Shown: piece by piece, positions 2,162 to 29,481 of the stretch
How the letters are laid out: each line of letters opens with the position of its first letter
Numbering within the stretch: the stretch's first letter is position 1
Assembly (NCBI GenBank): GCA_903942355.1
Contig: CAJAOR010000207.1
Coordinates: forward strand, 1-33,808
Origin: an uncultured Chlorobiaceae bacterium
GTDB lineage: Bacteria > Bacteroidota > Chlorobiia > Chlorobiales > Chlorobiaceae
Reading direction: 5' to 3'
Length of the DNA stretch: 33,808 nt
Translations under genes and position numbers: made by a program
The notes under the pieces: model-generated
The model's database searches: none
What the model was told of the DNA's origin: nothing
Seen by the model: only the letters and a program-made list of their open reading frames with translations

Positions 2162-2185
2162 CTGCAAAAAACCGTGAAAAACAGC

Positions 2186-9482: not shown

Positions 9483-10078
9483 TTCATGTTGACGCACAAA
9501 CCGAGCCGGATTCGTTCAATTCGAATGTCCGGATAAAGGGACTTGCTTGGCTCCAAGAAAAGACTATTCCTCTTGATAAACCGCTACCGCCAAAAACTGA
9601 TATTGAGCCTTATTGGCGCTTCTGCCTTGATGATTTGCATACAAATTACAACGGTTGCTGCGCATATTTAGCCGTTTTTTTCGAGCGGGTCACTGGTGGT
9701 GGTTCAGTCGATCATTTTATTGCTAAATCAAAACGGGCTGATTTGGCTTACGAGTGGAGTAATTACCGCCTTGCGTGTTCTCGCATGAATAGTCGCAAAC
9801 GAGAATACGACGATGTACTTGATCCTTTCGAGATAGAAAATGAATGGTTCCGTCTCAAACCGATTACCGGAAGAATCTATCCCAATCCAACATTAACCTC
9901 GGAGCAGCAGAGAAGCGTTCAGATAACGATAGAACGACTGAATTTGGATGATGCCGGATGTCGGGAAATACGAGCTCGGCATTATCAAGAATATTGTGAA
10001 GGTGAATACACTGCGGCATTTTTAAGGAAACGTTCCCCTTTCGTATGGTTGGAAGCCCAACGTCAGGGTTTGCTATAA
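9479..10078 (+). CDS. HNH endonuclease, partner of the AAA ATPase (PtuB-like)
   Basis: A 199-residue protein with an HNH-type core: GCCAYLAVFF, then SVDHFIAKSK and YEWSNYRLACSRMNSRK at about residues 74-107, supplying the His, Asn and final His/Lys-type positions. The ORF track starts at 9470. I choose the ATG at 9479, which has AAAGGA 8 nt upstream and overlaps the ATPase stop codon as ATGA. The overlap and the ATPase partner point to a two-gene defence module of Septu type, with the nuclease as effector. The C-terminal half (about 120-199) has no recognisable motif. A Tn3-type inverted-repeat remnant begins 50 bp after the stop. Confidence 0.82.
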   Translation: MIHVDAQTEPDSFNSNVRIKGLAWLQEKTIPLDKPLPPKTDIEPYWRFCLDDLHTNYNGCCAYLAVFFERVTGGGSVDHFIAKSKRADLAYEWSNYRLACSRMNSRKREYDDVLDPFEIENEWFRLKPITGRIYPNPTLTSEQQRSVQITIERLNLDDAGCREIRARHYQEYCEGEYTAAFLRKRSPFVWLEAQRQGLL

Positions 10079-11644: not shown

Positions 11645-11879
11645 TATACCTGTATTATCCTGAAATACGGAAAGGAAACAGGCATCATTACCAGCATGAA
11701 TTGTTTCTGCTTATACTCGTTGCGGTCAACGGCAGCAACGAATTCTCTGGAACACGGCGCTGATATCGGAAAGGTTCAAAGGAGTGTGGCTCGGTCATGC
11801 CAATGTTTCAACAACACGGCTTTATGACAGGAGGAAAAGCAGGCCGGAGGAAAGTCCGACGTTCAGGGTGAAGCACTGA
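11645..11879 (+). pseudogene. Decayed 3' third of the tyrosine recombinase gene
   Basis: These 235 bp are closely similar to 7775-8005, from TATACCTGTATTATCC to the stop codon, in the same orientation. The copy lacks the first two thirds of the gene and has four extra bases around 11777-11793, which break the frame before the LGHAN box. Its HSLRS box reads YSLRS, so the catalytic His is lost. It is a relic of a second integrase copy and, with 7037-8005, brackets the ATPase/HNH/AT-rich block. Confidence 0.9.
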
Positions 11880-12041
11880 ACGACCGAGAAAGACGTCTAT
11901 CAGAATTAAATCGCAATAGTTTAAGCGACTGCACAAATCAGTTTACTAAACCGGCCACCCAGATTAACACGAAATTGGATAGTAGTGGCGTAACCGTAGG
12001 CTTCACATTGCAACGGATTAGGTGTAACGGATAATGAGATG

Positions 12042-12078
12042 CAATTTAAATCTCTTAATTTCTAAAGAGGATTGAAAC
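12042..12078 (+). repeat. Solitary CRISPR-like repeat
   Basis: The stretch contains CTCTTAATTTCTAAAGAG, with 5-bp inverted arms, followed by the tail GATTGAAAC. A short hairpin followed by ATTGAAAC is the usual form of the 3' end of many type I and III CRISPR repeats. Only one copy is present and no cas gene or spacer series follows, so it is an orphan relic or a chance look-alike. The exact 5' boundary is uncertain. Confidence 0.4.
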
Positions 12079-12174
12079 TCTATTTTCTTACGCTACCCGT
12101 CTTACTCATTGGGAATGCCAGCCTAGAAAGGAAATCGAAAGTTCGTTATTCAGAACAAATATTATATAGAAAAC

Positions 12175-12936
12175 ATGAGCAGTCCAACGCTGAAAACGAT
12201 TAAACGGCTTTTTGCGGAGTCCGGAAACCAGTGCGCTTTTGCCGGGTGTAATGAACTTTTATGTAATGATGCCGGAGTTATTGTTGGTGAAATCTGCCAT
12301 ATAAAAGCAAGCAGAACAGGGGGCCCTCGATATGACTTCAACCAGACAGCAGAAGAGCGAAATGCATATGATAACCTAATTCTCTTATGTCCTACTCATC
12401 ATACATGGATAGATTCTAATCCTGATGAGTTTTCTGCTGAATCGCTTATCGCGATGAAAAGTGTCAAGAAAACGTATGCTGCTCACCCCGAAACAAGCGA
12501 AGATGCTTTGTATGCCAAAAAGCTCTTGGAAAAGTTTCTGCGGCAATCCCCTGCACAAAATATCATGATGAATAGCCCTGGGGCTATTCAAGCACACACG
12601 GTAAATCTTAAAACGACAATGAAAAACGTGATTGTGGCACCAGCCCCCAATACAATAGGGAATGACCAAAGAAAAAGCCGGTATGTCGAGTACTTGATAG
12701 AGCGCTACAACAAATTCGCTAGCACACATTACGCCGGAGCGAAGCCATTTTCATACGGAGCAATAGGGAGCAATATCGTATCGAAGTTTGGGTCAAAGTG
12801 GAGAATGCTGCCAGTTGAGCGATTTGAACAGGTGGCCTCCTATCTACAGGATAGAATATCAAAGACAAAACAGGCTAAATGGGGTCGCTTCAGGAAACGG
12901 ATTTTAAAGTACGTTAAGGAATCGGTAGCGGTCTGA
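12175..12936 (+). CDS. HNH endonuclease-like protein, 3' end replaced by Tn3 sequence
   Basis: A 253-residue ORF with a zinc-type HNH domain at the N-terminus: GNQCAFAGC (Cys20, Cys25), EICHIKA (Cys41, His42) and [15 protein letters not shown] (Cys72, His75, His76). Residues 90-170 look like a linker, and 170-235 form a second, Lys/Arg-rich domain ([25 protein letters not shown]). The transposon begins at 12881. The last 18 residues are translated from its inverted repeat and tnpA 3' region, overlapping tnpA convergently. Without the insertion the frame would continue at 17645 to a TGA at 17712, giving about 257 residues. The catalytic domain is intact, so the chimera might still be active. 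The weak ribosome binding site leaves the start moderately sure. Confidence 0.8.
12876..12880. repeat. Target-site duplication, left copy (TAAAT)
   Basis: TAAAT directly before the left inverted repeat is repeated directly after the right inverted repeat at 17640-17644. A 5-bp duplication is standard for Tn3-family transposition and shows one undisturbed insertion. Confidence 0.9.
12881..12918 (+). repeat. Left terminal inverted repeat of the Tn3-family element
   Basis: The 38-bp repeat begins GGGGTCGCTTCAGGAAACGG and ends ACGTTAAG, the usual form of Tn3-family ends. The tnpA stop codon (12914-12916) lies inside it, and the HNH frame reads through it. Confidence 0.93.
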
Positions 12937-15880
12937 GCGCTCTGAAATGCCCCTCTTTGCCCTTAAAGCGGTTGCGCCATACATAATCACCAGTCAGGTT
13001 GATGTGTTCCCATCCTAAAGGCGAGAGGTTTTGCAAGAGGAGCTGATCCACTTGTCGTCCTTGTTCTTTCCATGATTTGATGATACGATCCAGATACACC
13101 GTATTCCAGAGTGCAATTGCCGCAGTCACTAAATTCAACCCACTTGCCCGATATTGTTGTTGCTCGAAACTGCGGTCACGGATCTCACCAAGCCGGTTAA
13201 AGAAGACTGCACGAGCCAAAGAGTTGCGAGATTCACCTTTGTTCAGCCCTGCATTCACCCTTCGTCGGAGTTCGACATTTTGTAGCCAGTCCAGAATAAA
13301 CATGGTGCGTTCAATGCGGCCAAACTCTCGTAAAGCTAATGCCAAACCGTTTTGGCGAGGATAACTGCCAAGTTTTCGAAGCATCAGAGAAGCTGTTACC
13401 GTTCCTTGTTTTATCGAGGTCGTCAGTCGTAAAATATCATCCCAATGACTGCGGAGATGATTGATGTTCAGCCTGCCACCGATCAATTTTTCAAGTGCCG
13501 GATAATCAGCCGTTTTTTTCGGCACATAAAGTTTTGTCTCTCCCAAGTCACGGATACGGGGAGCAAATCGGAATCCCAGTAGGTGCATCAATCCAAAGAC
13601 ATGATCAGTGAAGCCTGCGGTATCAGTATAGTGTTCTTCGATCCGTAAATCCGATTCGTGATAGAGCAGTCCATCAAGGACATAGGTGGAATCGCGGATA
13701 CCGACATTAATAACTTTAATGTTGAAGGGTGCGTATTGATCAGAGATATGGGTGTAGAACATCCGTCCAGGTTCAGTACCGTACTTCGGATTAACATGTC
13801 CGGTACTTTCCCCTTGGTTACCAGCCTTGAATCGCTGCCCATCCGATGATGATGAGGTCCCATCACCCCAATTTTGGGCAAACGGATGCCGAAGTTGAGC
13901 GTTGACCAGTTCGGCAAGAGCTGCGGAGTATGTTTCATCTCGGATGTGCCAAGCTTGCAACCAAGAGAGCTTTGCGTATGTCGTGCCCGGACAGGATTCT
14001 GCCATTTTAGTCAGTCCAAGGTTTATCGCATCTGCTATAATTGCTGTCAGGAGTAATGAGGTATCCTTAGCCATGTCGCCAATCTTGAGGTGCGTGAACT
14101 GTCGGGAGAAACCTGTCCAAGCATCTACTTCCATAAGCAGATCAGTTATTTTAATATGTGGCAGGCACATTGCAGTCTGCTCAATGAACAGCTTTGCTGC
14201 TATGGGGACGACGGTGTCCTGCTGCGTGATTTTCAGACCGGATTCATTGATCACGGCATCGGGCAAATCGTTGGCCTGAGCCATGCTGTTTACAGTCCTC
14301 AGTTGTTGTTCCAAAAGACCCAGACGATCATGCAAATATTGATCACAGTCGATGTTGATATCAAGCGGTAATGTTCCAGCCTTTCTGAGAATATTGAATG
14401 TATCGGCAGGTACAAGGTATTCATCGAAGTCTTTGAACTGGCGTGATCCCTCAACCCACATATCGCCGGAACGGAGAGCGTTCTTCATTTCCGACAGAGC
14501 GCATAATTCATAATAGCGCCGGTCAATTCCCTCACCGCTGAAAACCAACTTCTCCCACCGCTTTTTGATAAAGGTAGTGGGTGCATCCGATGGTACCTTT
14601 CGGTTGTTATCAGCGTTCAGGGTGCGAATAACCTCAATGGCATCAAGCATATTTTGTGCGGCCGGTGCTGCTCGCAATTTCAGAACATTAAGAAATGCTG
14701 GAGCATAGCGGCGCAGCATACTGTAACTTTCCCCAAGACGATGCAGGTAATCAAAATCTTCAGGCTGAGCAAGTTTTTCCGCATCAGTCACGCTTGTTGC
14801 GAACGCTTCCCAAGACATGACTGACTCAATTGCAGCAAAGGCATCCCCACCATTTTGCCTCGCAGCAAGCAGGGCTTGACCGATCTTGCCGAAGAGCCGA
14901 ACCTTGTCATTAATCGCCTTACCAGATTCCTGAAAATTTTGCTGATGCCTGTTTTTCGCTGCGTTGAAGAGTTTACCGATGATTCGGTCATGCAAATCAA
15001 TAATTTCATCAGTTACGGTGGCTGTACCTTCCAGAATCAGAGCAACCAGAGTTGCATAGCGCCTGAGTAACTCAAACCTGGTCAAGTCGGCTGGTGTCAT
15101 CTGACCACCTTCTCGAGCGATCTTGAGAAGGCGGTTTTGATGGATCAGACGATCAATCCCGTTCGGCAGATTTATTGCGTGAAAGGTTTTTAGACGCTCA
15201 ATGTGTTCGAGCATGTGCCGTGAATTTGGTTTTGCAGGTGACTGCCGCAACCAGGCCAGCCAAGTAATCTGACTCTCTGGTCTTCGCTGAAGCAAGTCAT
15301 CAAGACGCTGACGGTGCTCGTCCGAGAGTGGATCGGTTAAGGCCACATAAATGCGTTTATTTGCACGAGTGATGGCTTCAGCACAGATGCTGTCGATAAC
15401 ATTCAGCGATGGCATGAGAATGAGCTGACGGCGTAGACTATCAAGTAGTTTTTCAGCCAACACAACACCCTTATCGGTTTGCCATGCTAACTCGTCTAAC
15501 GCCTGTAAAGAAGGACGAAAATGCCTATTAGTAAATGACTTGAAGCCAAAAACTGATTGCAATTCTATTAAATGCTCTCTCCGTGTTTCTGCCCGTCGGC
15601 CATACTTCTCCCACACCTCCATTTTTACATTAAGCTGTTTTGCAACAATACGAAGCAGTGGAGCAGACGGTTTGACATCTGGAGGTATTATCATTCCAGG
15701 ATAACGCATATAGCAGAGTTGCACGGCAAATCCCAAGCGATTTTCAGCACCCCGATGCTGACAAATAATTGACAGTTCCGAATCATTGAATGTATAGTGC
15801 CGGATCAACTCATCTTGAGTATTCGGCATAACCAGCAAACTGTCGCGTTCTGAAGCTGAAATAACTGAACGACGTGGCAT
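12914..15880 (-). CDS. tnpA: Tn3-family transposase TnpA
   Basis: A 988-residue transposase, the full length for the family, which cuts and joins the element ends in replicative transposition. The N-terminal DNA-binding part includes [18 protein letters not shown]. The RNase H-like DDE core is recognisable: Asp in SSSDGQRF (about 679), Asp in [13 protein letters not shown] (about 752) and Glu in [16 protein letters not shown] (about 881). Other family blocks are [14 protein letters not shown] and [16 protein letters not shown]. The frame is intact throughout. It is divergent from the resolvase, with the res-like region between them, as in the classical Tn3 layout. Its stop codon is within the terminal repeat. 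Confidence 0.97.
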
Positions 15881-15899
15881 TGATACTCCTCTTAGAAAC

Positions 15900-16030
15900 G
15901 AGGGTTTTTGAGAATACTTTTCAGTGAAGGAACAAGCATTGAAAAATAAGGTGTTACGATTCTCAAAAACAGTTCTTGAAATTAATTCTTAATATATTGT
16001 ATTTTAAATGAGTATTGAGAATACAAAAAG
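15900..16030. promoter_or_regulatory. Putative res recombination site and divergent promoters of tnpA/tnpR
   Basis: The AT-rich intergenic region has three related blocks: TTTTTGAGAATAC (15905-15917), its inverted form GATTCTCAAAAAC (15958-15970) and TATTGAGAATAC (16013-16024). Such repeated half-sites are expected for resolvase binding subsites and for autoregulation of both genes. Subsite boundaries are inferred. Confidence 0.65.
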
Positions 16031-16041
16031 GAAATATAGAT

Positions 16042-16599
16042 ATGCTTATTGGTTATGCCAGGGTTTCAACACAGGATCAAAATCTTAATCTTCAGATTGA
16101 TGCTTTAAGAAAGGCTGGATGTGAAAAGGTCTTCGATGATAAAGTGAGTGGTACACGGGCCGAACGCCCCGGACTTACCAAGGCACTTGAGCTGATGAGG
16201 GCGGGAGACACGCTTGTTGTCTGGAAACTTGATCGACTTGGCCGTAGCGTCAAGCAACTGGTTGATCTGGTCGCCGGACTTCAGAAACAGGGAGTTCAGT
16301 TCAAAAGTCTTACCGATGCCATCGATACCGGCACACCATCAGGCCGCTTTTTCTTTCACGTCATGGCAAGCCTCGCCGAAATGGAGCGGGAACTGACGGT
16401 TGAGCGTACTCGTGCAGGATTGGAAATTGCCCGCCAACTTGGCAGGAAGGGTGGCCGCAAGCGCTTGATGACTGACAGTAAAATTCATTCAGCAAAAAAG
16501 TTGCTGGCTAACGGGGTTCCGCCTCGGGATGTCGCAAAAGATCTTGGCGTATCTGTTCCGACGTTGTACCGATGGATTCCCGCATCCAATAATTCTTAA
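16042..16599 (+). CDS. tnpR: Serine resolvase TnpR
   Basis: A 185-residue serine recombinase that resolves transposition cointegrates at res. The N-terminal catalytic motif IGYARVSTQDQN carries the nucleophilic Ser. KLDRLGRSVKQL and GRFFFHVMASLAEMERE match the catalytic core and long E helix. The tail GRKGGRKRLM and the HTH-like PPRDVAKDLGVSVPTLYRW bind DNA. The ORF track begins at a TTG (16015). I choose the ATG at 16042, which has AAAAGGAAAT upstream and gives the standard N-terminus. The resolvase of a Tn3 element also often represses tnpA. A TATAAT sequence lies just after the gene (16615-16620), before the permease. Confidence 0.94.
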   Translation: MLIGYARVSTQDQNLNLQIDALRKAGCEKVFDDKVSGTRAERPGLTKALELMRAGDTLVVWKLDRLGRSVKQLVDLVAGLQKQGVQFKSLTDAIDTGTPSGRFFFHVMASLAEMERELTVERTRAGLEIARQLGRKGGRKRLMTDSKIHSAKKLLANGVPPRDVAKDLGVSVPTLYRWIPASNNS

Positions 16600-16711
16600 G
16601 GCGCTTTAACGTGGTATAATGTTAAGCCATGTTAACGTATATATTAATTGATAGTTAATTGGTCAATACTTTTTACTATTTGCTGTTTTATTGTATTCAT
16701 TCTGCAAATCG

Positions 16712-17506
16712 ATGTATATGCAACAAAAACATATTTACGGCTTTCTTGCCGGTGTTATTATCGGAACTCTTGGTGGCTTGATTGGACTTGGTGGGGCCGA
16801 ATTTCGACTTCCCCTTTTGATAGGCCTTTTTGCATTTCCTGCTCTTGATGCTGTGATTCTCAATAAAGCAATGAGCCTGGTTGTTGTTGCTTCAGCTTTA
16901 CCGTTCAGGGCCAGTACGGTTTCATGGCAGGCTATTGCGGATAATTGGCTTGTCATTATCAACCTTCTTGCCGGTAGCCTTATCGGTGCATGGCTTGGAG
17001 CGGGCTGGGCAACCATACTCCGTTCGGAAGGGCTCTACAAGATCATTGCCTTTCTCCTGCTCGCTATTGCCTGTGTCTTAGCAGGAAGCCATCTGGTGCA
17101 TGGCTCTGGCAAGCCTTTGCTGGACAATGCTATTGCTTTGGCAATATGCGGAGTACTGGCAGGCTTTGTAATTGGTGTTGTTGCTGCACTGCTTGGTGTA
17201 GCAGGTGGAGAACTGTTGATTCCAACGCTGGTGATTTTATTTGGGATCAATATCAAGTTAGCTGGCAGCCTCTCCCTTGCTATCAGCTTGCCGACCATGC
17301 TGGTTAGTTTTACTCGCTATAGCCGTGACAGCAGTTTTTCAGTTCTTGGGGCTAACCGGCCTTTTCTCTTTATCATGGCAGCAGGATCGCTCTGCGGCAC
17401 CTGGATTGGCGGGAGGTTGCTTGGTATTGTTTCAGAGTCTGTGCTTATCCCAATGCTGGTCTTGCTTCTTGTTTTATCTGCAATCAAGGTCTGGAAACAC
17501 AAGTAA
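16712..17506 (+). CDS. TauE/SafE-family permease, transposon passenger
   Basis: A 264-residue membrane protein with about seven to eight hydrophobic segments. The two-fold repeat typical of TauE/SafE (formerly DUF81) is visible: AGVIIGTLGGLIGLGGAE near the N-terminus and AGFVIGVVAALLGVAGGELL at about 154-173. The family exports or imports sulfite, sulfoacetate and related anions, and substrates differ among members. The track starts at TTG 16691; ATG 16712 (or 16718) is preferred. A possible TATAAT lies at 16615-16620, so it may have its own promoter. It is the sole passenger of the transposon and would travel with it. In a sulfur-oxidising host a sulfur-anion transporter would be plausible cargo, but the substrate is unproven. 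Confidence 0.88.
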   Translation: MYMQQKHIYGFLAGVIIGTLGGLIGLGGAEFRLPLLIGLFAFPALDAVILNKAMSLVVVASALPFRASTVSWQAIADNWLVIINLLAGSLIGAWLGAGWATILRSEGLYKIIAFLLLAIACVLAGSHLVHGSGKPLLDNAIALAICGVLAGFVIGVVAALLGVAGGELLIPTLVILFGINIKLAGSLSLAISLPTMLVSFTRYSRDSSFSVLGANRPFLFIMAAGSLCGTWIGGRLLGIVSESVLIPMLVLLLVLSAIKVWKHK

Positions 17507-17601
17507 TTGAAAAGATGAAATTGAGGCTGGTGTTCTCAACAGTGATTGACTTGTATCTTGTTTGGTAGGGATGGAATTGCTGTTGATTAACTCGAACAAT
17601 G

Positions 17602-17639
17602 CTTAACGTACTTTAAAATCCGTTTCCTGAAGCGGCCCC
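17602..17639 (-). repeat. Right terminal inverted repeat of the Tn3-family element
   Basis: The reverse complement begins GGGGCCGCTTCAGGAAACGG and ends ACGTTAAG. It matches the left repeat at 37 of 38 positions, the sixth base being C instead of T. Confidence 0.93.
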
Positions 17640-17644
17640 TAAAT
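17640..17644. repeat. Target-site duplication, right copy (TAAAT)
   Basis: This is an exact copy of the five bases at 12876-12880, directly following the right inverted repeat. Confidence 0.9.
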
Positions 17645-17712
17645 GCAATCAAAGCAAACAGTATCCTTCATTCTCCACCTATGACGAGTACTGCATAAAG
17701 CATGGATTTTGA
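17645..17712 (+). pseudogene. Severed 3' end of the HNH gene
   Basis: If the transposon and one TAAAT are removed, the HNH frame continues here as CNQSKQYPSFSTYDEYCIKH followed by GF and a TGA at 17710-17712. This restores a protein of about 257 residues. The fragment has no start of its own and is now separated from its gene by 4.8 kb. Its end overlaps the ATG of the next ORF by 11 bp, an operon-like arrangement. Confidence 0.85.
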
Positions 17713-18117
17713 TGAATTTTTAGCTGCATTGCCAATGTATCAACGTCCACACTGCTCTATGATTGCAAGAAAAAAGCCAGAAGAGAAGCTCTACGTTCAG
17801 TGTGACAAGATCAGCCTCCCCAAGAGGGAAGGCATCAGGCTTGAGAAGTGCCTTTTTTGGTTAATCACAATCCCGCATCATCATGCCGCTTTCAGGCCAA
17901 ATGAGTGTAAGAACAGGCATACCTTTTCAATGAAGTCCAAGCAGTTATCCGCCATCTTGATCGGTGGTATTCGAAAGCCGATTTTAATGGCGTCAATATG
18001 TCTATTTGTAAGACAATATCTAATCAACTCCCCCGAAGCATAGCGACCGGGTATGAGTTCATTTTTCAACCATTCATTCATGAAGCGGAGCTTCGGGGAA
18101 TTCAACCCAGAGATTAA
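17702..18117 (+). pseudogene. Frameshifted gene of unknown function, downstream partner of the HNH gene
   Basis: The first frame starts MDFDEFLAALPMYQRPHCSM and continues to about residue 70 (AAFRPNECKN). After about 17915 the protein-like reading moves to another frame: QAYLFNEVQAVIRHLDRWYS and so on to RGIQPRD and a TAA at 18115-18117. The track's single-frame ORF (17702-18043) therefore seems to follow the wrong frame after the break. The rebuilt product would be about 137 residues; no family is recognised. Its ATG overlaps the ancestral HNH stop, so the two were probably one operon. A sequencing error could mimic the break. Confidence 0.5.
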
Positions 18118-18181
18118 ATGGGACTCAGAACTGCACGGTATTGCTGCTTTAGTGTCTGGGGAATTATTACCTGATATGACA

Positions 18182-20185
18182 CTATATTCCCAGCTTCTGA
18201 AAAAAAACTTTGTTGCGCATCTTTGCATCCTTCAGAACTTTGTCCCAGCTAATGACTTCAAGATACAAATTGATATTATCCCTCCATTGAAACCACCCCG
18301 AACGGTCAGGCATTGGTTTGAAGTCTTTTTCACGTTCAAGCCATGCTTCGACTTTTGAAGTCAAATCACAAACCACATATCCATAGAACGGGGTGTTATC
18401 CATAACTTGAATCTTGCGTCCTTCGGGCGTTTTATACTTGCCGTCTCTGATGTTGTTGACGTAACGCACAATCTGTTGAACAGGATCTTCCTGCGAAGAT
18501 GGGTTTACAAAATCATCTCGTTGTGGCTTCTTGAACTCAAAGATTGTGATAGGATTACTCGCTTCATTGTCCTCACGAAAAAGAACTCGCTTATTGTAGG
18601 CAATAAGGTCTGGGCGATCTGTTTTCTTTCCATCCAGAGGGATATCGGATGAGACATACGAGCAGAAATTCATTCGTTCATCAATTATCCAAAGATGATG
18701 ATCGTTAAAGGAGGTGATTTCTGTGTCGCCCTTTCGCGGGAAGATAATATCGTGTACTCTGCCCTCTGCTGAATAAGTGCCGGTATCATCAATCTCAAGA
18801 CTTTTGCCAAAAATATCCAGTATTTTACGCCGAAGTGCAATGTAGTGGATCAAGTCGTTTCTGCTCGTATCAGAGATTTTACTAACAATCGCAAGGATAC
18901 TATCCTGTAATTTCTCGAATTTGCTTTCCGCCAGCAATTTTTTAACATCATTTTTGATTTCGATTTCTTGCGCAAACTTTTCTTTCTGAAGCCGAATTTC
19001 AATTTCCTCATTTGATGGGTTATATGGCATCCCACTCAGATCAATCTTACTGAGGATATTCTTGTGCCATGGAGCTTCTTCGTCAACATAGCACTGCACG
19101 CGCTCTTTTTTCTTTTCCTGTCTAAAGGTGATATCAGGGCCAATAGCTTCTTTGGCTGCAGTTGCGGCTTCGCGCTCTATCTCAGTTTGGGATATTCCAA
19201 GAATAAGATCCATTTCAATTTGGAACTCGAATCCTCCTCGCTCCAATGATACATTCCGGTCGAGGTAAGCACTAAATACATAAGCTTTTATAATATAGTT
19301 GCGCTCGCGATCAATCTCGCCAGTTCCATCCTTATCATAAAATTCATCTTCAAACTCTGGGATGTATTTGTGAATCGGATTTCCCGAGACTTCCCGTTTG
19401 TGAGCAACAAGGCTGATCCGACTCTTTTGATTCTTCGGAGCATAGAGTTTGAAAATCCGGACGTGAAACTCTTCCTCAGTATCCGTGGCATGTAGTTTAA
19501 ATATTTTTTTATCAACTACTATTTCCTGTATTACGGCAGCAAGCTCATTGTTGATAAAATCATTTAGTCGGATCATGCCGCTCCCATCCTTTTCCGAAAG
19601 GACAATCTCTGGGCAAATGTAATCCTCTGTAATGAAGTATGGGAGCAGCCGCTCGAACAGATTTCGTGCTATCGTCGAGAGTTTCTTGTCGAAGAAACGG
19701 CCTTTTTTCAAGATAGATAAGGTCACTACGGTACCAGATTCCTGCTGTACACTTGCCTCAACCTTTTCGTTAACGATAATGTCGTTGTCCTTACCCATAG
19801 AGAAACAACGGAGCTTGAGTATGCTACCATCGCAGTAGACACTCCTGACATGAAGATCCTCAAAGTATTTGAGGCAGGTAAAACGGCCAAAGCCTTTACC
19901 GCCTTCATCGATCTTAAGGTCGGTATAGAGGGTGTCAAACGAGTTACAATTCTCATCCGTAAAGCCTATTCCGTTATCCTGTATTTCAAAGCTGCAAACA
20001 TCAGGAAGACTATTATCGAGTTTGATCTGATGGCTTCTTATTGCACGGATAGAGACTTTTCCTTGCATCCTGCTGGCAGCGTCAATTGCCTGAATGGCGT
20101 TAACGGTCATCTCAACAACAGGCGTGTACACTGTGGTATTAGCCCGGATGTTCTCTACCGCTCTTTTGATGTTGACGTTGCTCAT
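18182..20185 (-). CDS. GHKL (HSP90-like) ATPase with C-terminal PD-(D/E)XK-like nuclease
   Basis: A 667-residue protein with an N-terminal GHKL ATPase fold: the N box with Glu25 and Asn29 (VVEMTVNAIQAID), the G1 box DNGIGF (70-75) and the G2 box GGKGFGRFTCLK (95-106). A middle transducer-like part and a Glu/Lys-rich helical stretch (about 385-440) follow. Near the C-terminus PDLIAYNKRV and ITIFEFKKPQRD (Asp about 526, Glu-x-Lys about 549-551) form a PD-(D/E)XK-like nuclease signature. ATP-driven conformational change coupled to DNA cutting would be a natural defence mechanism; this is inference. It lies 98 bp downstream of the restriction-modification operon on the same strand and converges on the frameshifted HNH partner gene. 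I cannot match it to a named system. Confidence 0.8.
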   Translation of the reverse strand: MSNVNIKRAVENIRANTTVYTPVVEMTVNAIQAIDAASRMQGKVSIRAIRSHQIKLDNSLPDVCSFEIQDNGIGFTDENCNSFDTLYTDLKIDEGGKGFGRFTCLKYFEDLHVRSVYCDGSILKLRCFSMGKDNDIIVNEKVEASVQQESGTVVTLSILKKGRFFDKKLSTIARNLFERLLPYFITEDYICPEIVLSEKDGSGMIRLNDFINNELAAVIQEIVVDKKIFKLHATDTEEEFHVRIFKLYAPKNQKSRISLVAHKREVSGNPIHKYIPEFEDEFYDKDGTGEIDRERNYIIKAYVFSAYLDRNVSLERGGFEFQIEMDLILGISQTEIEREAATAAKEAIGPDITFRQEKKKERVQCYVDEEAPWHKNILSKIDLSGMPYNPSNEEIEIRLQKEKFAQEIEIKNDVKKLLAESKFEKLQDSILAIVSKISDTSRNDLIHYIALRRKILDIFGKSLEIDDTGTYSAEGRVHDIIFPRKGDTEITSFNDHHLWIIDERMNFCSYVSSDIPLDGKKTDRPDLIAYNKRVLFREDNEASNPITIFEFKKPQRDDFVNPSSQEDPVQQIVRYVNNIRDGKYKTPEGRKIQVMDNTPFYGYVVCDLTSKVEAWLEREKDFKPMPDRSGWFQWRDNINLYLEVISWDKVLKDAKMRNKVFFQKLGI

Positions 20186-20283
20186 CGCTAGAATAATCTA
20201 TCGTTATTAAATAATATGACGCTGCTTCGAATCCTCGTAACTATATTATATAATTAATATTTATGAAGTGTTTTAAATAACGA

Positions 20284-23200
20284 TTATTCTGGTATTGGTA
20301 CCGCACGAACAATCGCCAGATCGTTTTCTGAAAGCGAGAAAAGTGCGGAAACACGGGCCTCGATCTGTTCTTTCAGATTAGCTGCGTTACGCATGAAGAC
20401 TGTACGCTGATGAGGTGTTCGAGCTGAGTTCGCAGCATTATTGGCAGCAAAGATCTTTTCCACCAAATTTCCTATAGAAATTTGTTCGTCATCAGATGCT
20501 ACCGGGATTGGAAGATGTTCAATATACTGTTTCCCATGTGAGTAATAACCGCCACGAAATGGACTCGTATTTATACGAACAAAGGCTTCGCTTAATGGAT
20601 GATTTAATACTGCAAGCAGATAGAAATTGCTGAAATTGGCTCCGGGTTTCGACCTGATCATGTAATAGGGGCCATTACCCCCGCCTGTCACCATGATATT
20701 GGCGTCATCATATGCATAGCGCGCTTCGCGAGAGAGAATCGGCAAGATAATCTTTGGCGTAGAAAATTTTGTTAAGCTTTGCGACCGGCCAAACTGATAA
20801 AATTGCCTCTCGGAGACAATCCCGCCTTGAATATTACGGCGTGCTAGTTCCTCCTGACGAGCGCAAAGATATGCCCAGCAACCCGGATAGTTCCGAGCCA
20901 TCGTCTCTGGTTGAATCAACCGGTATGAGTTATGAATGCCATCGCTAATCAATTCATAGGGGAAAATCATCCAGGCATTTGCCTGCGGCCGGGCATAGTT
21001 TAACATTTGGACATCGAGCAAACAGGGACGAAGAAGCGCACGCTCAATTGGCCAATTTCTATTGTTCCAAGAAAGTGAAACTGTGGACAAGTTTTCTTCA
21101 ATACCTGTAAAAATATATATCTTATCCGCACTGGTTTGTACACCAACGAATATTTCAGCAACTTGGCCGAGTTCATCAGGGCACGTTACACGAACACGCC
21201 CGAATAGTTCATTGGTATCTGCATCGGCAAACTGCCAAGTATCTTCCCCAAATCTATTTGCCAATACATTTAAAACTTGACCTGGTGTACCATAACGCCA
21301 AGTTTCAAGTTTTTTCACCCGCTCGACTCGAACGGAGTCTTGACCATGGCGATCTAATACGAGAATACAAGTATAATTTGTAACCTGTAGACCAAAAACT
21401 TGCTGAATACCAAAATGCACGATTTCCTCCAAAAACTTATCCGCCACAATAAGTCTCCGGAGGGCACGCCCAGCTTGGATCGTCATGAATTTATGCGGAA
21501 TTATTACCCCCAGCCTGCCGCCAGTTCTGAGTAATGTCAGTGCTCGTTCAATAAAGAGAGCATATTTATCAAAATTATCTTGCCGTGCAGTCAAATATGG
21601 GGATTGTTGGCTCTTGTAGAATTTCACCTCCTCTGGTGAATACTCCATCATATTTTGAATCCGTATATAAGGTGGATTACCAACAATCACATGAAAACCA
21701 CCCTCCTCCATTTCAATAGGAAACGCATTCCTCCATGTAAATGGATTAATCTTTTCCTGTAACTGAGGAGGCAAAGTACCACATGAGAATGTCCATTCAG
21801 ACTGACAGACTAAGCTATTTCCTGCAAAGATAACATTATCAAGTGATGGTAGCACGGGAATACCGTCTGTGGCCACAAAGTCTTGTAACCCAGTCGCAGT
21901 CTCATTTTCAATAAGTTTAAGCAAAAGGCTAAAACGCGCAACGTCGGTAGCATTGGGATCAATATCAACACCACGAATATGTTTTTGCAGAATCCGCCGC
22001 TTTTCTGCAAAAGTAAGATTCCATTTGCCAGCGGTTCCCTCGTAGATTGTCCGACCAATATGGTTTTCGGAATTATCAGAAAGATACCATGTTAAGTAAT
22101 GATTCAGGATAGCTTCATAAACCGACAGAAGAAACACGCCGGAACCACAACATATATCCGCAACGGTGAACCCGTTCAAATCAACTGGACTTTTGCCGGA
22201 TAAAGATGGCTCCAAAGTGCGCTCAACAATAGCATCGACTATGTAACGAGGAGTTGGCACTACCCCTCCACTATCGCGCAGCTCTGGCTTGTAGATAATT
22301 TCAACTGCACCATCAACAACAGAAATTACCTCACCAAGAAACTGCTCATAAATTTTACCAAGCACTTCAGTCTCAACTACTGAAAATGTATAGGGGCTTT
22401 TGGGGTAATATAGTTCGATGATGATTTCTTGCAGAACGTTGTCACTGATTCGGACTCCTAATGGATCATCATCAATCAAATGAAAAAGTCCGGAATCATA
22501 AAACTCATCTGCCCGACGGAGTTGAGCAATAAGTGCATTGAAGGTATTACTAGCGGGTAAGTTCTTCAGTGTTTCATAACGCTCAATGTCTCGATCTTCG
22601 CAGATGCGCAAAAAAACAATCCGCAACAGAAAAAGTTGAACCACGTAGGTAAGTTCTGTTGGTCCAAGACCCGGAGTATTTGCAAAAATATCCGCAGCTA
22701 ATCGCTCCCGCCATGATCTCACTTGACCAAGAAAGAAACCATCAAATTGTTCAGTCCCTTGCCGTGAAGGGTTATTAGCAAATCGAGCATCAAAGTCACC
22801 GGAATAGACTGCTTGACGTGATAGCATAGCCCAAAGTTCCTCAAAACGCTCAGGGAACTCCTTATATGGGACTAAAAGTATCCGAGCTACATGCACTTCA
22901 TCAGAGCCGGTAGGCTTAGGTAAACAGTCGTATATGGCCAATTGATAAAAATTGGTCAGAACCACTATCGGTAAATTTGCTGAGTACCCATAGCGTCTTG
23001 CCTGAAATGCGGCTTCACGGTTTTTGCCAATACGAACATGAGGCTTTTTTGCCTCAACGAAGAACTTCCGCTGTCGCGCTAAGCGTAATTCGTAATCCGG
23101 CTTTTTTGAAATAGGCTCTTCGTCAACATCGACAGTAGCTTCTTCGATAACTTCGCGTAAAGCGAGAGCATAATTATTTCTATTGTAAACATCCCAGCCG

Positions 23201-23349
23201 AATGCTTCAAGTAGCGGTGTAATAAAGTCTGTACGGGCTTGAGTTTCGTTGTAGACTGATCGCAAATAATCTGCTTCATGATTCTGAAATTTCCGGACCA
23301 GCTCTGTAACGTGTTCTAGTGCGGTGGCTTTGATGCGCTCTTCTGTCAT
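20284..23349 (-). CDS. Type IIG-like restriction-modification enzyme (Eco57I/TaqI-class methyltransferase with N-terminal nuclease)
   Basis: A 1021-residue fused enzyme. The N-terminal nuclease has KKPDYELRL (Asp85) and FFVEAKKPH (Glu99-Ala-Lys101), the PD-(D/E)XK pattern, preceded by LLEAFGWDVYN as is common in type IIG enzymes. A helical segment at about 200-330 leads to the SAM-binding motif I VADICCGSGVFLL (about 395-407) and the catalytic GNPPYIRIQN (about 557-566), which specify N6-adenine methylation. The C-terminal ~350 residues look like a TaqI-type target-recognition domain, including GGGNGPYYMI. Its ATG overlaps the stop of the upstream methyltransferase (23346-23349). Such enzymes usually both cut and methylate one asymmetric site; the recognition sequence is unknown. 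Confidence 0.92.
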   Translation of the reverse strand: MTEERIKATALEHVTELVRKFQNHEADYLRSVYNETQARTDFITPLLEAFGWDVYNRNNYALALREVIEEATVDVDEEPISKKPDYELRLARQRKFFVEAKKPHVRIGKNREAAFQARRYGYSANLPIVVLTNFYQLAIYDCLPKPTGSDEVHVARILLVPYKEFPERFEELWAMLSRQAVYSGDFDARFANNPSRQGTEQFDGFFLGQVRSWRERLAADIFANTPGLGPTELTYVVQLFLLRIVFLRICEDRDIERYETLKNLPASNTFNALIAQLRRADEFYDSGLFHLIDDDPLGVRISDNVLQEIIIELYYPKSPYTFSVVETEVLGKIYEQFLGEVISVVDGAVEIIYKPELRDSGGVVPTPRYIVDAIVERTLEPSLSGKSPVDLNGFTVADICCGSGVFLLSVYEAILNHYLTWYLSDNSENHIGRTIYEGTAGKWNLTFAEKRRILQKHIRGVDIDPNATDVARFSLLLKLIENETATGLQDFVATDGIPVLPSLDNVIFAGNSLVCQSEWTFSCGTLPPQLQEKINPFTWRNAFPIEMEEGGFHVIVGNPPYIRIQNMMEYSPEEVKFYKSQQSPYLTARQDNFDKYALFIERALTLLRTGGRLGVIIPHKFMTIQAGRALRRLIVADKFLEEIVHFGIQQVFGLQVTNYTCILVLDRHGQDSVRVERVKKLETWRYGTPGQVLNVLANRFGEDTWQFADADTNELFGRVRVTCPDELGQVAEIFVGVQTSADKIYIFTGIEENLSTVSLSWNNRNWPIERALLRPCLLDVQMLNYARPQANAWMIFPYELISDGIHNSYRLIQPETMARNYPGCWAYLCARQEELARRNIQGGIVSERQFYQFGRSQSLTKFSTPKIILPILSREARYAYDDANIMVTGGGNGPYYMIRSKPGANFSNFYLLAVLNHPLSEAFVRINTSPFRGGYYSHGKQYIEHLPIPVASDDEQISIGNLVEKIFAANNAANSARTPHQRTVFMRNAANLKEQIEARVSALFSLSENDLAIVRAVPIPE

Positions 23350-25061
23350 ACATTAGAACTTATAGGGGTTTTCCTACCTCTTCGCTTCCTGGCCATACGA
23401 CGATCTCGCATCTTTATCCAGATATCACGCAATGAATTACATTCGACCTCGGACAGCCCCATGTGCCCTCTCAACACAATCCGCGCGTTCTCTTCAAGTA
23501 CATCATCAAGTCGCCCAGAACGAATGAGATGATCGGACTCTTCTAAGGCCATAGCACCATTTAGATTTGCTGGCATCAATAAGCGCTCAGCTTCTTTCGG
23601 TTCGAGTTCTAGAACACCACCGCCATAGCTACGACCTTCGATTTCAGCAGAAGCTGCCGTCATCCAAGTATAGGTATTAGCAATGACCTGTTCTGGCTTA
23701 CCTATCTTACAGGTCATACGGTGAATTGTATCGGTGGATGTCGCGTTGGCTTGATTTAAAACCATACGAGGAAAATCATAAATCTGCCGGAATACAAAAC
23801 CATCAGGCGCCCAGACAGATGGGACTGAATACCATGGTTCGCGTATAGAACATTTATACCCATTATTTACGAGATTATATTCACCAAAGCGAATATAACT
23901 CAACAATGCATCATTGAGCTTGCCGTTCTGAGTGGGAGTAATATGGAGAAGATGTACACGATCATCAGCAGCAGAAAGGTTTTTCCAATCAATGCAACCG
24001 ATCTGCACCCCTTTTAAATGGGTAGAACGAGATACCAATGGAATCGTATAGCCCTCAAGTCCTAGCTGAACAACTTGAGAGCTTGTGAGAACAAAATATT
24101 CGTTTTTTCCGGTTACAACTCCAACATTCACGCTAGCATATTTCGATAAATTTGCGGTTGAAGATGAGTCGCGCAGCTCTCGCATAAATGCGATTTCGGA
24201 TCCAGAGAGAAAGTATTTCAACCATTTTTCGTTATCGTGGCGGATAATCTTCGGCTGTGCATCGGCCAACACTAATTCAGGTATGAAATTTGTAATCTGA
24301 GCAACTGTCCCCACTTCTGTCATTGTCACCCTACAGGTATTCGCCTCTGTTGCTTGAGGAAGTGCTCCGTCAGCTAGTAATAGAACCACTTCTTGTTCAG
24401 CATTTTTAAAGAATAGTTCATTGCATGCGACGATATCGATTCGCTTAAAGCGGTCAGTCAAGAATGAACGCAGTTGTGCCGCATAGCTAACTTGCAAAAG
24501 CTCTGCAGGAAGCACCAGCGCTAGACGGCCCCCGGTTCGCAAACTAGCGACGGCTGCAACCACAAACGGAACCCAAATATTGGTTAGCCGATTGGGGCTA
24601 AGGCCCAATTTAACCATGATTTCCATTGCTAGACTACGATGTGGCTCAGGAAAACTCTGGTAACGAATGAATGGTGGATTTCCAATAACGACATCATAAG
24701 CTGGTTGTGGATTTTGTATCCACCAGCTAAAGAAATCACTTGTCGTCACTACTTCGGAATTATATATCCCAAGTTTCTCGTGCAGTCTTGTGCGGGCACG
24801 ATCCGCTTCTTCTGCATTGATCTCAATACCTTTTAGGCTGTGTGAGATTGCCTGAAAACTTGACCCAAGGTTAATAAACCTATCCATTGCCGCTTCCAGA
24901 AAAACACCATCCCCGCAACTAGGCTCTAAAACTCTATTATCTTGTGACCGGATGGCCCACTGGCAAAGCCAGGATGCAAGATCAATGGGAGTATAGTAAC
25001 CTCCACGTAGTTTATCTAGGCTACCAGCTGTAAACCGATTATTTTGAAGTTGATTTCCCAT
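23346..25061 (-). CDS. N6-adenine DNA methyltransferase (Eco57I/TaqI class)
   Basis: A 571-residue methyltransferase with SAM motif I VLEPSCGDGVFLEAAM (residues 44-59) and catalytic GNPPFIRYQSF (127-137). It has no nuclease motif. The opening KLRGGYYTPIDLASWLCQWA is the usual N-terminal helix-and-YYTP element of this class. The C-terminal half probably holds the target-recognition domain. It ends with a basic tail (RRMARKRRGRK). The gene is coupled to the fused RM enzyme by a 4-bp overlap. It may methylate the second strand of an asymmetric site or protect the host before the fused enzyme is made. It begins with a 1-bp TAATG overlap to a small upstream ORF. Confidence 0.92.
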   Translation of the reverse strand: MGNQLQNNRFTAGSLDKLRGGYYTPIDLASWLCQWAIRSQDNRVLEPSCGDGVFLEAAMDRFINLGSSFQAISHSLKGIEINAEEADRARTRLHEKLGIYNSEVVTTSDFFSWWIQNPQPAYDVVIGNPPFIRYQSFPEPHRSLAMEIMVKLGLSPNRLTNIWVPFVVAAVASLRTGGRLALVLPAELLQVSYAAQLRSFLTDRFKRIDIVACNELFFKNAEQEVVLLLADGALPQATEANTCRVTMTEVGTVAQITNFIPELVLADAQPKIIRHDNEKWLKYFLSGSEIAFMRELRDSSSTANLSKYASVNVGVVTGKNEYFVLTSSQVVQLGLEGYTIPLVSRSTHLKGVQIGCIDWKNLSAADDRVHLLHITPTQNGKLNDALLSYIRFGEYNLVNNGYKCSIREPWYSVPSVWAPDGFVFRQIYDFPRMVLNQANATSTDTIHRMTCKIGKPEQVIANTYTWMTAASAEIEGRSYGGGVLELEPKEAERLLMPANLNGAMALEESDHLIRSGRLDDVLEENARIVLRGHMGLSEVECNSLRDIWIKMRDRRMARKRRGRKTPISSNV

Positions 25062-25264
25062 TATGTCATAGCTCCTACCGTAAGAATCATAAGCAAATCG
25101 TGAAAATGAGCGAGAAAGTACATAAGATTAAGCTCAATGAGCCTAACTAAATCAAAAGCAGAACAACTATTGTCTTTATGCAAGAGCTCATAAATCTGCT
25201 GAATACCTTGGTTAAGCTGAAATATACGAGAATATCTCGGCGATCTATAACTGCTATTTTTCAC
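25061..25264 (-). CDS. Possible small leader protein of the RM operon, 67 aa
   Basis: A 67-residue ORF starting at GTG, whose TAA stop shares one base with the methyltransferase ATG. It is basic at the start (MKNSSYRSPRYSRIF) and hydrophobic in the second half (LMYFLAHFHDLLMILTVGAM). The position suggests a coupled leader or a controller, but no helix-turn-helix is evident. A stop lies a few codons before the GTG in the same frame. Its 5' part lies opposite an open frame leading into the umuD fragment, so chance cannot be ruled out. Confidence 0.4.
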   Translation of the reverse strand: MKNSSYRSPRYSRIFQLNQGIQQIYELLHKDNSCSAFDLVRLIELNLMYFLAHFHDLLMILTVGAMT

Positions 25265-25290
25265 AAACTCAAGCAGTTGCTACTCCACTC

Positions 25291-25446
25291 TGGGCCTTCT
25301 ATCCCGTAGACTTAACCCCAACGCTTGAGTTGCACCTTGCAGCAACAGAAGTCTCTGAAGGTTTCCTTTCTCCTGCCAACGGCGATCACGAAATAACTCT
25401 TGATCACAATAAAACGCTCATCAAACACCCAACAGCTACCTTTTAA
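25291..25446 (+). pseudogene. umuD: umuD gene fragment
   Basis: One frame reads FYPVDLTPTLELHLAATEVS, then EGFLSPANGDHEITLDHNKT and LIKHPTATF before a TAA. This aligns with residues ~14-62 of the intact UmuD at 26312 (FFTPDFSTLLELPLAG, GFPSPAEEYVEIALDLNKEL, IKHPASTF). The copy lacks a clear start and the whole catalytic half, so it is inactive. It is too diverged to be a very recent duplicate. It lies between the RM operon and the SRAP gene. Confidence 0.75.
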
Positions 25447-25467
25447 GCACAACCAAAATCTGGGCTA

Positions 25468-26148
25468 TTACTCAATATTCTCTATACAGTTGCTGCCCTG
25501 ATAGCGGGCATTGTTGACCTGTGTTGATACAGGATACATATCCAGAATGCCATTATCAGCGGGAGCCAGCATCTTCGAAAGATTTACCGGATCAGCTTCA
25601 AGCCACGTTTTCCAGTTTTCGGGTTCGAGAATTACTGGCATTCGGTCATGGAGAGTTGCAATCTGCTCATTTGCCGCAGTGGTGATAATGGTGCATGTAG
25701 TGATTTCGGGCTCTTCGGTATTCTTTGGCTTCCAGGTGTCCCACAGTCCGGCAAATGCCATGAGCAAGCCATCCGCCCGGTGGATGTACCAGGGTTGCTT
25801 CTTTGCACCGTCGATGCGCCTCCACTCATAAAAGCCGCTTGCTGGAATCAGGCAGTGGTTCCGCCCAACCAGATGCCGGTAATAGGGTTTCGAGACCAAT
25901 GATTCAGCCCGTGCGTTGATTGGCCTGATTTTGGGAAGTTCTTTGGCCCAATGGGGAATCAGCCCCCATCGTGCTGAGGTGATCTGATAAGGCTTATGGC
26001 TGGCCTGCAGGATGATAATATCCGTTTCCGGAGGGATGTTGTAACGATTCGTCTGGGGGTAATCCTGATTCTCTTCAAACGGAAGCTCCAGTTGGCGAAG
26101 AAGATCAAGAAAATATTTCAGTTCGTAAAACCCGAATCGTCCGCACAT
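25468..26148 (-). CDS. SOS-response-associated SRAP peptidase (YedK/HMCES family)
   Basis: A 226-residue SRAP-domain protein. YedK/HMCES proteins form a covalent DNA-protein crosslink with abasic sites in single-stranded DNA through Cys2, shielding them until repair. The start is fixed by MCGRFG, whose Cys2 must be exposed after Met removal. The long ORF in the track extends 113 codons too far upstream. Further family blocks are NRYNIPPETD, ARWGLIPHWAK, INARAESL, CLIPASGFYEW (catalytic Glu) and LHDRMPVIL (active-site His). The gene is divergent from umuDC, with a 163-bp shared intergenic region, consistent with joint DNA-damage induction. Confidence 0.95.
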   Translation of the reverse strand: MCGRFGFYELKYFLDLLRQLELPFEENQDYPQTNRYNIPPETDIIILQASHKPYQITSARWGLIPHWAKELPKIRPINARAESLVSKPYYRHLVGRNHCLIPASGFYEWRRIDGAKKQPWYIHRADGLLMAFAGLWDTWKPKNTEEPEITTCTIITTAANEQIATLHDRMPVILEPENWKTWLEADPVNLSKMLAPADNGILDMYPVSTQVNNARYQGSNCIENIE

Positions 26149-28136: not shown

Positions 28137-29018
28137 CTATGCAACGACCAGATATCTATCTGACAAATATTGCTTCCATCTCAATATTTCTTCATTGCCT
28201 TCAATTGCCTGGATGTATCGCTCGTAAGTACATCCGAAGACCTTTTGAGGTTCATTCAGATACGATTGGTATTCCGGGATGACCTTATCGAAATGCTTGT
28301 TCCCTGATGGATAGAGTATAATTGAATAAAAATCGTCAAGTTTATTTTCATTATCAGGACTTAATTGGCACATAGATAAGCCCAGAAGATGGTTTCTCCA
28401 TATCTGCCTCAAATCGTCGCCATGAAGCCTAGGATTATCGGTATCAAGAAATGCCGACGATTGCCGGGTAACCTGCCAGTATCTTGACTGTTTATCTTCG
28501 ACTTTCTTTTTCTCGGTTTTGCCGATTGGATACCCTCTCTCTGTGTACTTTAACTCAATCCCGATGCCTGTTTTCTTTCCCTGACGGTCCGTAAAACTAA
28601 TGAATGTGTCAAATGAAGTGGCATCATCCAGGTAATCACCTTTCGGCTTGGGAGCAAACTCAATCTTGATCTTGTACGGAGCATCGCTCTCCAGGCCAAA
28701 TGCGGTTTTGATAATGTGCTTTGCCAGCGAAGGATCGGTACGAAGCGGAGCAAGCATGTTAAAAGGAATGTGTTCGCTCCGCAGCATATCCCCATCACGA
28801 GATATTGAGTTTTCGGAATACCGCTTCCGAAGCGCCCTTTTAACATTGAGCCCATCGTAATAGTTGTGCAGAGCCTTTGCGTCTGGCTCGGTCAATTTGC
28901 TCCCATATTCGTTGCATTCCATTTGAAGAACGTTGGCTCGATATTGAGATTGATGGAGTCTGGCTGCTGCTTTGAAACTATCGTCAAGAGGGTATGGCTT
29001 ACCGATATCAATCATCAT
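28137..29018 (-). CDS. PD-(D/E)XK-like putative restriction endonuclease (PGN_0703-like)
   Basis: A 293-residue protein. A nuclease signature is visible as SFDTFISF (Asp137), then a beta strand GIGIELKYTE with Glu155-Leu-Lys157, the D...ExK arrangement. The N-terminal basic region (HQSQYRANVLQ, RALRKRYSEN) and the overall length resemble proteins annotated as PGN_0703-type putative restriction endonucleases; this family call is from memory. Two adjacent ATGs (29018 and 29015) can serve as start. It converges on umuC, and the small zinc-protein gene upstream on the same strand is 241 bp away. Three TGTTACG sequences lie in its upstream region. Confidence 0.65.
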   Translation of the reverse strand: MMIDIGKPYPLDDSFKAAARLHQSQYRANVLQMECNEYGSKLTEPDAKALHNYYDGLNVKRALRKRYSENSISRDGDMLRSEHIPFNMLAPLRTDPSLAKHIIKTAFGLESDAPYKIKIEFAPKPKGDYLDDATSFDTFISFTDRQGKKTGIGIELKYTERGYPIGKTEKKKVEDKQSRYWQVTRQSSAFLDTDNPRLHGDDLRQIWRNHLLGLSMCQLSPDNENKLDDFYSIILYPSGNKHFDKVIPEYQSYLNEPQKVFGCTYERYIQAIEGNEEILRWKQYLSDRYLVVA

Positions 29019-29259: not shown

Positions 29260-29481
29260 TCACCTCTGCAGCCTCTCAGCCATTTCCTGAAGCTTCGCAA
29301 TATCTCGATTGATGATGTCGATGGCGCAAGTAGCACAGTAGTGTTCGTTTGACCTACCATCAGAAACCTTCAAGCGCTTGTCGCCACTCATAACACGATG
29401 TGCTGCATTGTGTTGACAATTATGTGCTTTTTTAGCCTCGTCTACCTCCACTCTCTGTAGAATTGATTTCGGTCTAGGCAC
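29260..29481 (-). CDS. Small zinc-finger-like protein coupled to the helicase gene
   Basis: A 73-residue protein starting at GTG 29481. That start has a strong ribosome binding site (GGGAGG six nt upstream) located inside the end of the helicase gene, and the two genes overlap by 8 bp. The track's longer ORF is thus too long. AHNCQHNAAHRV and EHYCATCA give Cys, His and Cys-x2-Cys ligands suited to one zinc ion. A short helical tail follows (IAKLQEMAERLQ). Tight coupling suggests it works with the helicase, perhaps as a nucleic-acid-binding subunit. The family is not recognised by name. Confidence 0.7.
   Translation of the reverse strand: MPRPKSILQRVEVDEAKKAHNCQHNAAHRVMSGDKRLKVSDGRSNEHYCATCAIDIINRDIAKLQEMAERLQR

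What the first reader, a model, noticed from the sequence alone, without database searches (positions are those of the whole stretch)
18182..20185. GHKL ATPase fused to a PD-(D/E)XK-like nuclease beside a restriction-modification operon
The protein joins an HSP90/MutL-type ATP-binding domain (DNGIGF, GGKGFGRFTC) to a C-terminal nuclease signature (EFKKP). It lies in a defence island and is not a MutL, topoisomerase or histidine kinase. I cannot match it to a named anti-phage system, so it is a main candidate for something little described.
Basis: partly seen in the sequence, partly recalled or inferred. Interest (0 to 1): 0.72.

Follow-up and report, generated by a model that had tools for sequence, protein, structure and literature searches.

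The report
GHKL-ATPase Shedu nuclease beside restriction operon
This gene encodes a single-protein phage-defence nuclease of an already described kind (a Shedu nuclease driven by an HSP90/MORC-like ATPase, as in the V. cholerae protein VcSduA); the new part is that it sits as an exchangeable cassette behind a restriction-modification operon, where a related genome carries the Gabija defence system instead.

Summary
A 667-aa ORF on the minus strand (18182-20185) joins an N-terminal GHKL ATPase with an S5-type transducer (residues 1-391) to a C-terminal PD-(D/E)XK nuclease (about 464-667; E474, D526, E550-x-K552). "Cannot match it to a named system" does not hold. It belongs to the family called paraMORC3 in 2008, of which VcSduA (Vibrio cholerae) was shown in 2025 to stop phages alone and was classed as Shedu type I-D. 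The nuclease half resembles solved Shedu nucleases best (VIA-align Z 9.2-9.8) and matches a Shedu profile (hhalign probability 90, E 1.6e-6; shuffled controls near zero). Vibrio homologues carry E27 and K557 (counted from their MSLH start), the residues proven essential in VcSduA; the window has E25 and K552 there. Context: 28 of 85 close homologues lie within 300 bp, same strand, of a restriction-type gene, and partner types are swapped on the tree. In a same-genus genome the same restriction operon (98.6% nucleotide identity) is followed by Gabija in place of this gene. I propose an ATP-gated clamp nuclease, probably attacking DNA ends, perhaps as a second layer behind restriction. The protein is a new member of a known kind; the exchange with Gabija is the freshest part.

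The parts
18182..20185 (-). GHKL-Shedu (paraMORC3 / VcSduA-type) gene, 667 aa
19013..20185 (-). GHKL ATPase plus S5-type transducer (residues 1-391), HSP90/MORC/SMCHD1/topoVIB-like
   Evidence: AF2 model pLDDT 87; VIA-align Z 18.9 to HSP90 and 18.2 to MORC2; Pfam HATPase_c
18797..19012 (-). long helical linker (residues 392-463, helices 392-419 and 424-462)
   Evidence: secondary structure of model
18185..18796 (-). Shedu-like PD-(D/E)XK nuclease (residues 464-667): E474, D526, E550-x-K552, Q571, Y575
   Evidence: hhalign to Shedu; fold match to 8ti9/8ps4/8ps5/8ti8; conservation
20284..23349 (-). type IIG restriction enzyme-methyltransferase (Eco57I-like, 1021 aa), upstream neighbour
   Evidence: PDLC03604, E 8e-281
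23346..25061 (-). M.Eco57I-like adenine methyltransferase (571 aa), overlaps the type IIG gene by 4 bp
17765..20264 (.). exchangeable cassette: its place is taken by Gabija GajA/GajB in G033 contig C25 (L176)
   Evidence: border alignments
12882..17638 (.). Tn3-family transposon (tnpA, tnpR, TauE-like gene) with 38-bp inverted repeats and 5-bp TAAAT duplication; empty site in L176 (neighbour, not part of the system)
12175..12936 (+). HNH protein at the left edge of the exchange locus, kept in L176

Best explanation
A single-gene anti-phage nuclease of the GHKL-Shedu kind (paraMORC3; VcSduA; Shedu type I-D), carried as an exchangeable defence cassette directly downstream of a type IIG restriction-modification operon. 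Proposed mechanism: two subunits bind ATP through E25/N29 and close like HSP90 or MORC into a clamp around DNA; the S5 domain and helical arm pass the state to the C-terminal PD-(D/E)XK domain (E474, D526, E550, K552), which nicks or cuts the captured DNA. Shown here: domain make-up, motif conservation, homology, predicted fold and cassette nature. Shown elsewhere for VcSduA: both active sites are needed and it protects on its own. Inferred: clamp, dimer, DNA ends as trigger (shown for another Shedu, EcSduA) and a possible second-layer role after restriction has cut phage DNA.
For: GHKL and nuclease motifs conserved in 77 homologues. Model pLDDT 87, N-half like HSP90/MORC2/SMCHD1. C-half model pLDDT 85; the four best structural matches are all SduA, Z 9.2-9.8. 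C-half alignment against Shedu: hhalign 90.1%, score 48.6; 60 shuffled controls at most 14.4; single-sequence controls, other nucleases included, at most 15.5. Position match to VcSduA E27/K557 in Vibrio homologues L132/L133 with PMC12137116. Same locus carries Gabija in G033. Restriction-type gene within 300 bp in 28 of 85 close homologues, 2 of 35 distant ones; 1 of 20 random 20-kb regions held any such gene. Partner type changes at least 11 times on the tree. EcSduA end sensing: PMC12904381.
Against: No phage test here. The window protein is only about 30% identical to the Vibrio proteins, and the VcSduA sequence itself was not in hand. PF14082 (DUF4263/SduA_C) is not reached by HMMER from the window. 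There is a 98-bp gap to the R-M gene, and about two thirds of close homologues have no detected R-M neighbour, so co-working with R-M is not required. Foldseek alone gave no significant hit for the C-half (best E 0.014).
Confidence: 0.9

Rival explanations
1. Obligate subunit of the type IIG R-M: the GHKL protein works only in complex with the R-M enzyme, for example as its motor or second nuclease.
For: Same strand, next gene; other homologues overlap their R-M-type partner in an ATGA fashion (L003, L020, L022, L026, L052, L055).
Against: The same M plus IIG pair exists without it on Mesorhizobium, Xanthomonas, Ancylobacter and Neorhizobium plasmids and in G033. No other fetched homologue has this R-M adjacent. 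VcSduA acts alone (PMC12137116).
Confidence: 0.08
2. Independent Shedu gene that merely shares a defence island; no functional link to restriction at all. (This concerns only the R-M link, not the identity of the protein, so it overlaps with the best explanation.)
For: VcSduA acts alone; two thirds of close homologues have no detected R-M neighbour; the island holds several other systems.
Against: R-M-type neighbours are enriched, on the same strand, often with overlapping start and stop, and renewed repeatedly on the tree.
Confidence: 0.5
3. MutL/MORC-type repair or chromatin ATPase with a housekeeping role.
For: Same GHKL plus S5 fold.
Against: Found in 2 of 101 genomes including its own; no MutL family match; MORC S5 motif absent in 77 of 77 rows; carried on plasmids and viral-type contigs.
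Confidence: 0.02

Closest known systems
VcSduA (Vibrio cholerae WASA lineage), Shedu type I-D; PMC12137116
   Same: GHKL ATPase then PD-(D/E)XK Shedu nuclease in one chain of similar length; catalytic Glu and Lys align (E25 with E27, K552 with K557, by way of Vibrio homologues)
   Different: About 30% identity to the Vibrio-type proteins; separate, well supported clade; lies directly behind a type IIG R-M; own activity untested
paraMORC3 family, Iyer, Abhiman and Aravind 2008; PMC2292703
   Same: N-terminal GHKL plus S5 with C-terminal E-D-ExK restriction-fold nuclease; links to R-M genes; scattered distribution
   Different: Exact sequence membership could not be checked because the 2008 alignment is not held; the Gabija exchange is not described there
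Shedu SduA of Bacillus cereus and E. coli (8ti8, 8ti9, 8ps4, 8ps5)
   Same: Nuclease core fold and catalytic motif
   Different: Their N-terminal parts are not the GHKL ATPase seen here (from general knowledge of these structures; not tested)
Gabija (GajAB)
   Same: Occupies the same place behind the same R-M operon in G033; also linked to DNA ends in the literature (PMC12904381)
   Different: Unrelated proteins (OLD-type ATPase/TOPRIM plus UvrD-type helicase)

Membership tests
GHKL-Shedu (VcSduA / Shedu type I-D / paraMORC3) | N-terminal GHKL ATPase with motifs I-IV | tested here: met
   HATPase_c E 4.7e-7; E25, N29, D70, G72, G74, G98, G100, R101 conserved in 77 rows
GHKL-Shedu (VcSduA / Shedu type I-D / paraMORC3) | S5-fold transducer after the GHKL domain | tested here: met
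   Residues 1-391 of the predicted model align with ATPase plus middle domains of HSP90, MORC2, SMCHD1, Z 16.7-18.9
GHKL-Shedu (VcSduA / Shedu type I-D / paraMORC3) | C-terminal nuclease with E-D-ExK motif | tested here: met
   E474, D526, E550, K552
GHKL-Shedu (VcSduA / Shedu type I-D / paraMORC3) | Nuclease related to the Shedu domain (DUF4263) | tested here: met
   hhalign 90.1%, E 1.6e-6 with controls; top four structural matches are SduA
GHKL-Shedu (VcSduA / Shedu type I-D / paraMORC3) | Direct HMMER match to Pfam PF14082 (SduA_C) | tested here: inconclusive
   No match in the window; 1 of 77 homologues at E 0.14. The Vibrio-type homologues also miss it, so this model does not discriminate
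GHKL-Shedu (VcSduA / Shedu type I-D / paraMORC3) | Phage protection that needs both active sites | not testable with these tools
   Shown only for VcSduA (PMC12137116)
MORC proper | S5-domain motif GhXhhpXXRhl | tested here: not met
   Absent in 77 of 77 rows
MutL | Sequence-family match to MutL | tested here: not met
   No MutL family in Pfam or NCBIfam
Obligate type IIG R-M component | Constant presence with this R-M | tested here: not met
   R-M pair without it in four plasmids and in G033

The most novel reading that the evidence does not exclude
Restriction-modification operons have a swap-in second-stage slot. End-attacking nucleases (GHKL-Shedu here, Gabija in the sister genome) are exchanged behind an otherwise identical R-M operon because restriction cuts supply the free DNA ends that trigger them, giving a two-step relay in which methylation of the host also protects it from the second nuclease.
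Probability: 0.2. Interest if true: 0.65.

Novelty: new member of a known kind. Interest (0 to 1): 0.38.

Why it matters
It places a large clade of unannotated 'ATP-binding proteins' (510 relatives found in species genomes) in a defence family that the PADLOC models used here miss. It also gives a natural experiment: one R-M operon with two alternative downstream nucleases, which makes the idea of restriction feeding end-sensing nucleases directly testable in a laboratory strain.

Tried and rejected
(1) Housekeeping MutL, topoisomerase or HSP90: no family match, MORC motif absent, present in 2 of 101 genomes counting its own. (2) Obligate part of the type IIG enzyme: the R-M pair occurs without it, and no other fetched homologue has this R-M adjacent. 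(3) Direct Pfam or PADLOC naming: no Shedu hit in the window protein; only profile-profile and fold comparison showed it. (4) PDB sequence search with profiles of the whole protein and of the C-half: nothing useful. (5) Foldseek with the C-half alone: no significant hit, best McrC at E 0.014; Shedu came out on top only in the VIA-align second look. (6) E. coli genomes: no near DNA match. (7) Viral contigs with the type IIG protein: none. (8) Promoter and terminator scan of 17400-25600: chance level, so operon membership of the GHKL gene is undecided. (10) The papers defining Shedu types (Gu 2025) and end sensing (Loeff 2025) are not held; I used other papers that cite them.

Full report
Observation. 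The window holds a single 667-aa ORF on the minus strand at 18182-20185. Pfam finds only HATPase_c, E 4.7e-7, residues 23-157; PADLOC finds nothing. The GHKL motifs are E25xxxN29, D70NGIGF75, G95-R101 and GT151-152, and the nuclease residues are E474, D526, E550 and K552. In 77 aligned homologues at 23-79% identity D70, G72, G74, G98, G100, R101, D526 and K552 are invariant, and E25, N29, E474, E550, Q571 and Y575 nearly so. Against the nearest relative (L013, 79% identical) pN is 0.11 and pS 0.80, strong purifying selection.

Structure. The AlphaFold2 model of the whole protein has mean pLDDT 87.4 and pTM 0.74. Residues 1-391 match HSP90 (Z 18.9), MORC2 (18.2) and SMCHD1 (18.0) over about 290 residues, i.e. 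the ATPase plus the middle (S5-type) domain. Foldseek's first hits were topoisomerase VI B subunits. The C-terminal 236 residues, modelled alone (pLDDT 84.8), match best the Shedu nucleases 8ti9 (Z 9.8, rmsd 4.1, 157 aligned), 8ps4 (9.5), 8ps5 (9.3) and 8ti8 (9.2). Other PD-(D/E)XK enzymes (EndoMS, BspD6I) follow at 8.2 and below. The lead is one to one and a half Z units, so on its own the fold says 'PD-(D/E)XK, Shedu first'; Foldseek by itself gave no significant hit. The profile comparison is the stronger evidence: 77 C-terminal rows against eight Shedu proteins (seven found by PF14082, one annotated) give 90.1% probability, E 1.6e-6, with D526 on the Shedu DF, EFKKP on EIKxP and EVISWDKLL on the Shedu TYDELL stretch. 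Sixty column-shuffled Shedu profiles scored at most 14.4 against 48.6, and single proteins of the window, two nuclease domains among them, at most 15.5.

Identity. Iyer and colleagues (2008, PMC2292703) described paraMORC3: GHKL plus S5 plus a C-terminal restriction-fold nuclease with an E-D-ExK motif, linked to R-M systems in part. A 2025 paper (PMC12137116) showed that a V. cholerae protein of this layout, VcSduA, protects against Drexlerviridae phages, needs E27 and K557, leaves the infected culture alive, and belongs to Shedu type I-D. Vibrio-family homologues fetched here (L132, L133), counted from their MSLH start, have the aligned residues at exactly 27 and 557; the window has E25 and K552 (the start choice is mine). 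The window's clade of about 80 close relatives is distinct from the Vibrio-type clade (FastTree). So the protein is a new member of a known kind.

Context. Upstream on the same strand lie an Eco57I-like type IIG enzyme (20284-23349) and an M.Eco57I-like methyltransferase (23346-25061) that overlap by 4 bp; the gap to the GHKL gene is 98 bp. Among 85 close homologues 28 have a restriction-type gene within 300 bp, against 2 of 35 distant ones; all of the listed adjacent partners in the close clade are on the same strand. Twenty random 20-kb regions from other genomes gave a single hit anywhere. Two cautions: the query set for that count was drawn partly from these same loci, and many loci are related by descent. 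The partners differ: Eco57I-type IIG, DrmMI-like IIG, MmeI-type IIG, type I, type III with GmrSD, type ISP, and a DEAD helicase plus GIY-YIG-type (T5orf172) pair. They change at least 11 times among the labelled rows of the tree, and the window and its nearest relative have different partners.

Exchange. The type IIG plus methyltransferase pair occurs without the GHKL gene on plasmids of Mesorhizobium, Xanthomonas, Ancylobacter and Neorhizobium. A genome of the window's own genus, G033, carries the pair at 98.6% nucleotide identity over 4.9 kb (L176 7676-12617 against window 20265-25206). The flank on the other side is also shared (L176 3250-3372 against 17639-17764, 92%, and 2024-3256 against 11645-12881, 90%). 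Between these flanks G033 has GajA and GajB of Gabija (PADLOC E 6e-281 and 4e-247) where the window has the GHKL-Shedu gene. G033 has no GHKL-Shedu elsewhere in its assembly. Both genomes are drafts and partly incomplete, and this is one case.

Mechanism. Shown: two conserved catalytic centres in one chain, a predicted HSP90/MORC-type ATPase fold, a Shedu-type nuclease, mobility as a cassette. Known for relatives: both centres needed and protection without partners (VcSduA); [quoted passage not shown] Inferred: ATP-driven dimer clamp, capture of free ends, nicking of phage DNA. The R-M link may be a relay in which restriction makes the ends, or only shared transport of defence genes; the data do not decide, and I give the plain-neighbour reading about even odds.

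Verdict. Observation confirmed, interpretation partly supported, known kind. Interest is moderate, carried mainly by the exchange with Gabija and the changing R-M partners.

Noticed in passing
window 8139-9482 and 9470-10078 (+): Septu defence pair PtuA/PtuB (PADLOC E 4.6e-182 and 6.3e-75), next to a tyrosine recombinase at 7037-8005; in L176 the shared sequence jumps from the recombinase end to the HNH region, so Septu is missing there.
   Followed up: partly
window 12882-17638: Tn3-family transposon with 38-bp inverted repeats (37 of 38 match) and a TAAAT target duplication; carries tnpA, tnpR and a TauE-like gene; the empty site is seen in L176.
   Followed up: yes
window 28137-29018 and 29474-31270 (-): PDDEXK_13 / REase-ARP nuclease next to a superfamily II helicase: another possible restriction system; the nuclease has no PADLOC match.
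   Followed up: no
window 32252-33304 (+): AbiEi-type antitoxin domain protein near the contig end; the AbiEii partner was not looked for.
   Followed up: no
L055, L059, L062 and 11 further loci, upstream of the GHKL gene: Recurrent pair of a DEAD-type helicase (about 685 aa) and a T5orf172/MUG113 GIY-YIG-type protein (about 430 aa) whose stop usually overlaps the GHKL start; no PADLOC match. Possibly an undescribed three-gene system.
   Followed up: partly
L012 6556-7932: A plain Shedu nuclease gene lies directly upstream of a GHKL-Shedu gene inside a type I R-M operon on a Vibrio fluvialis IncC plasmid.
   Followed up: no
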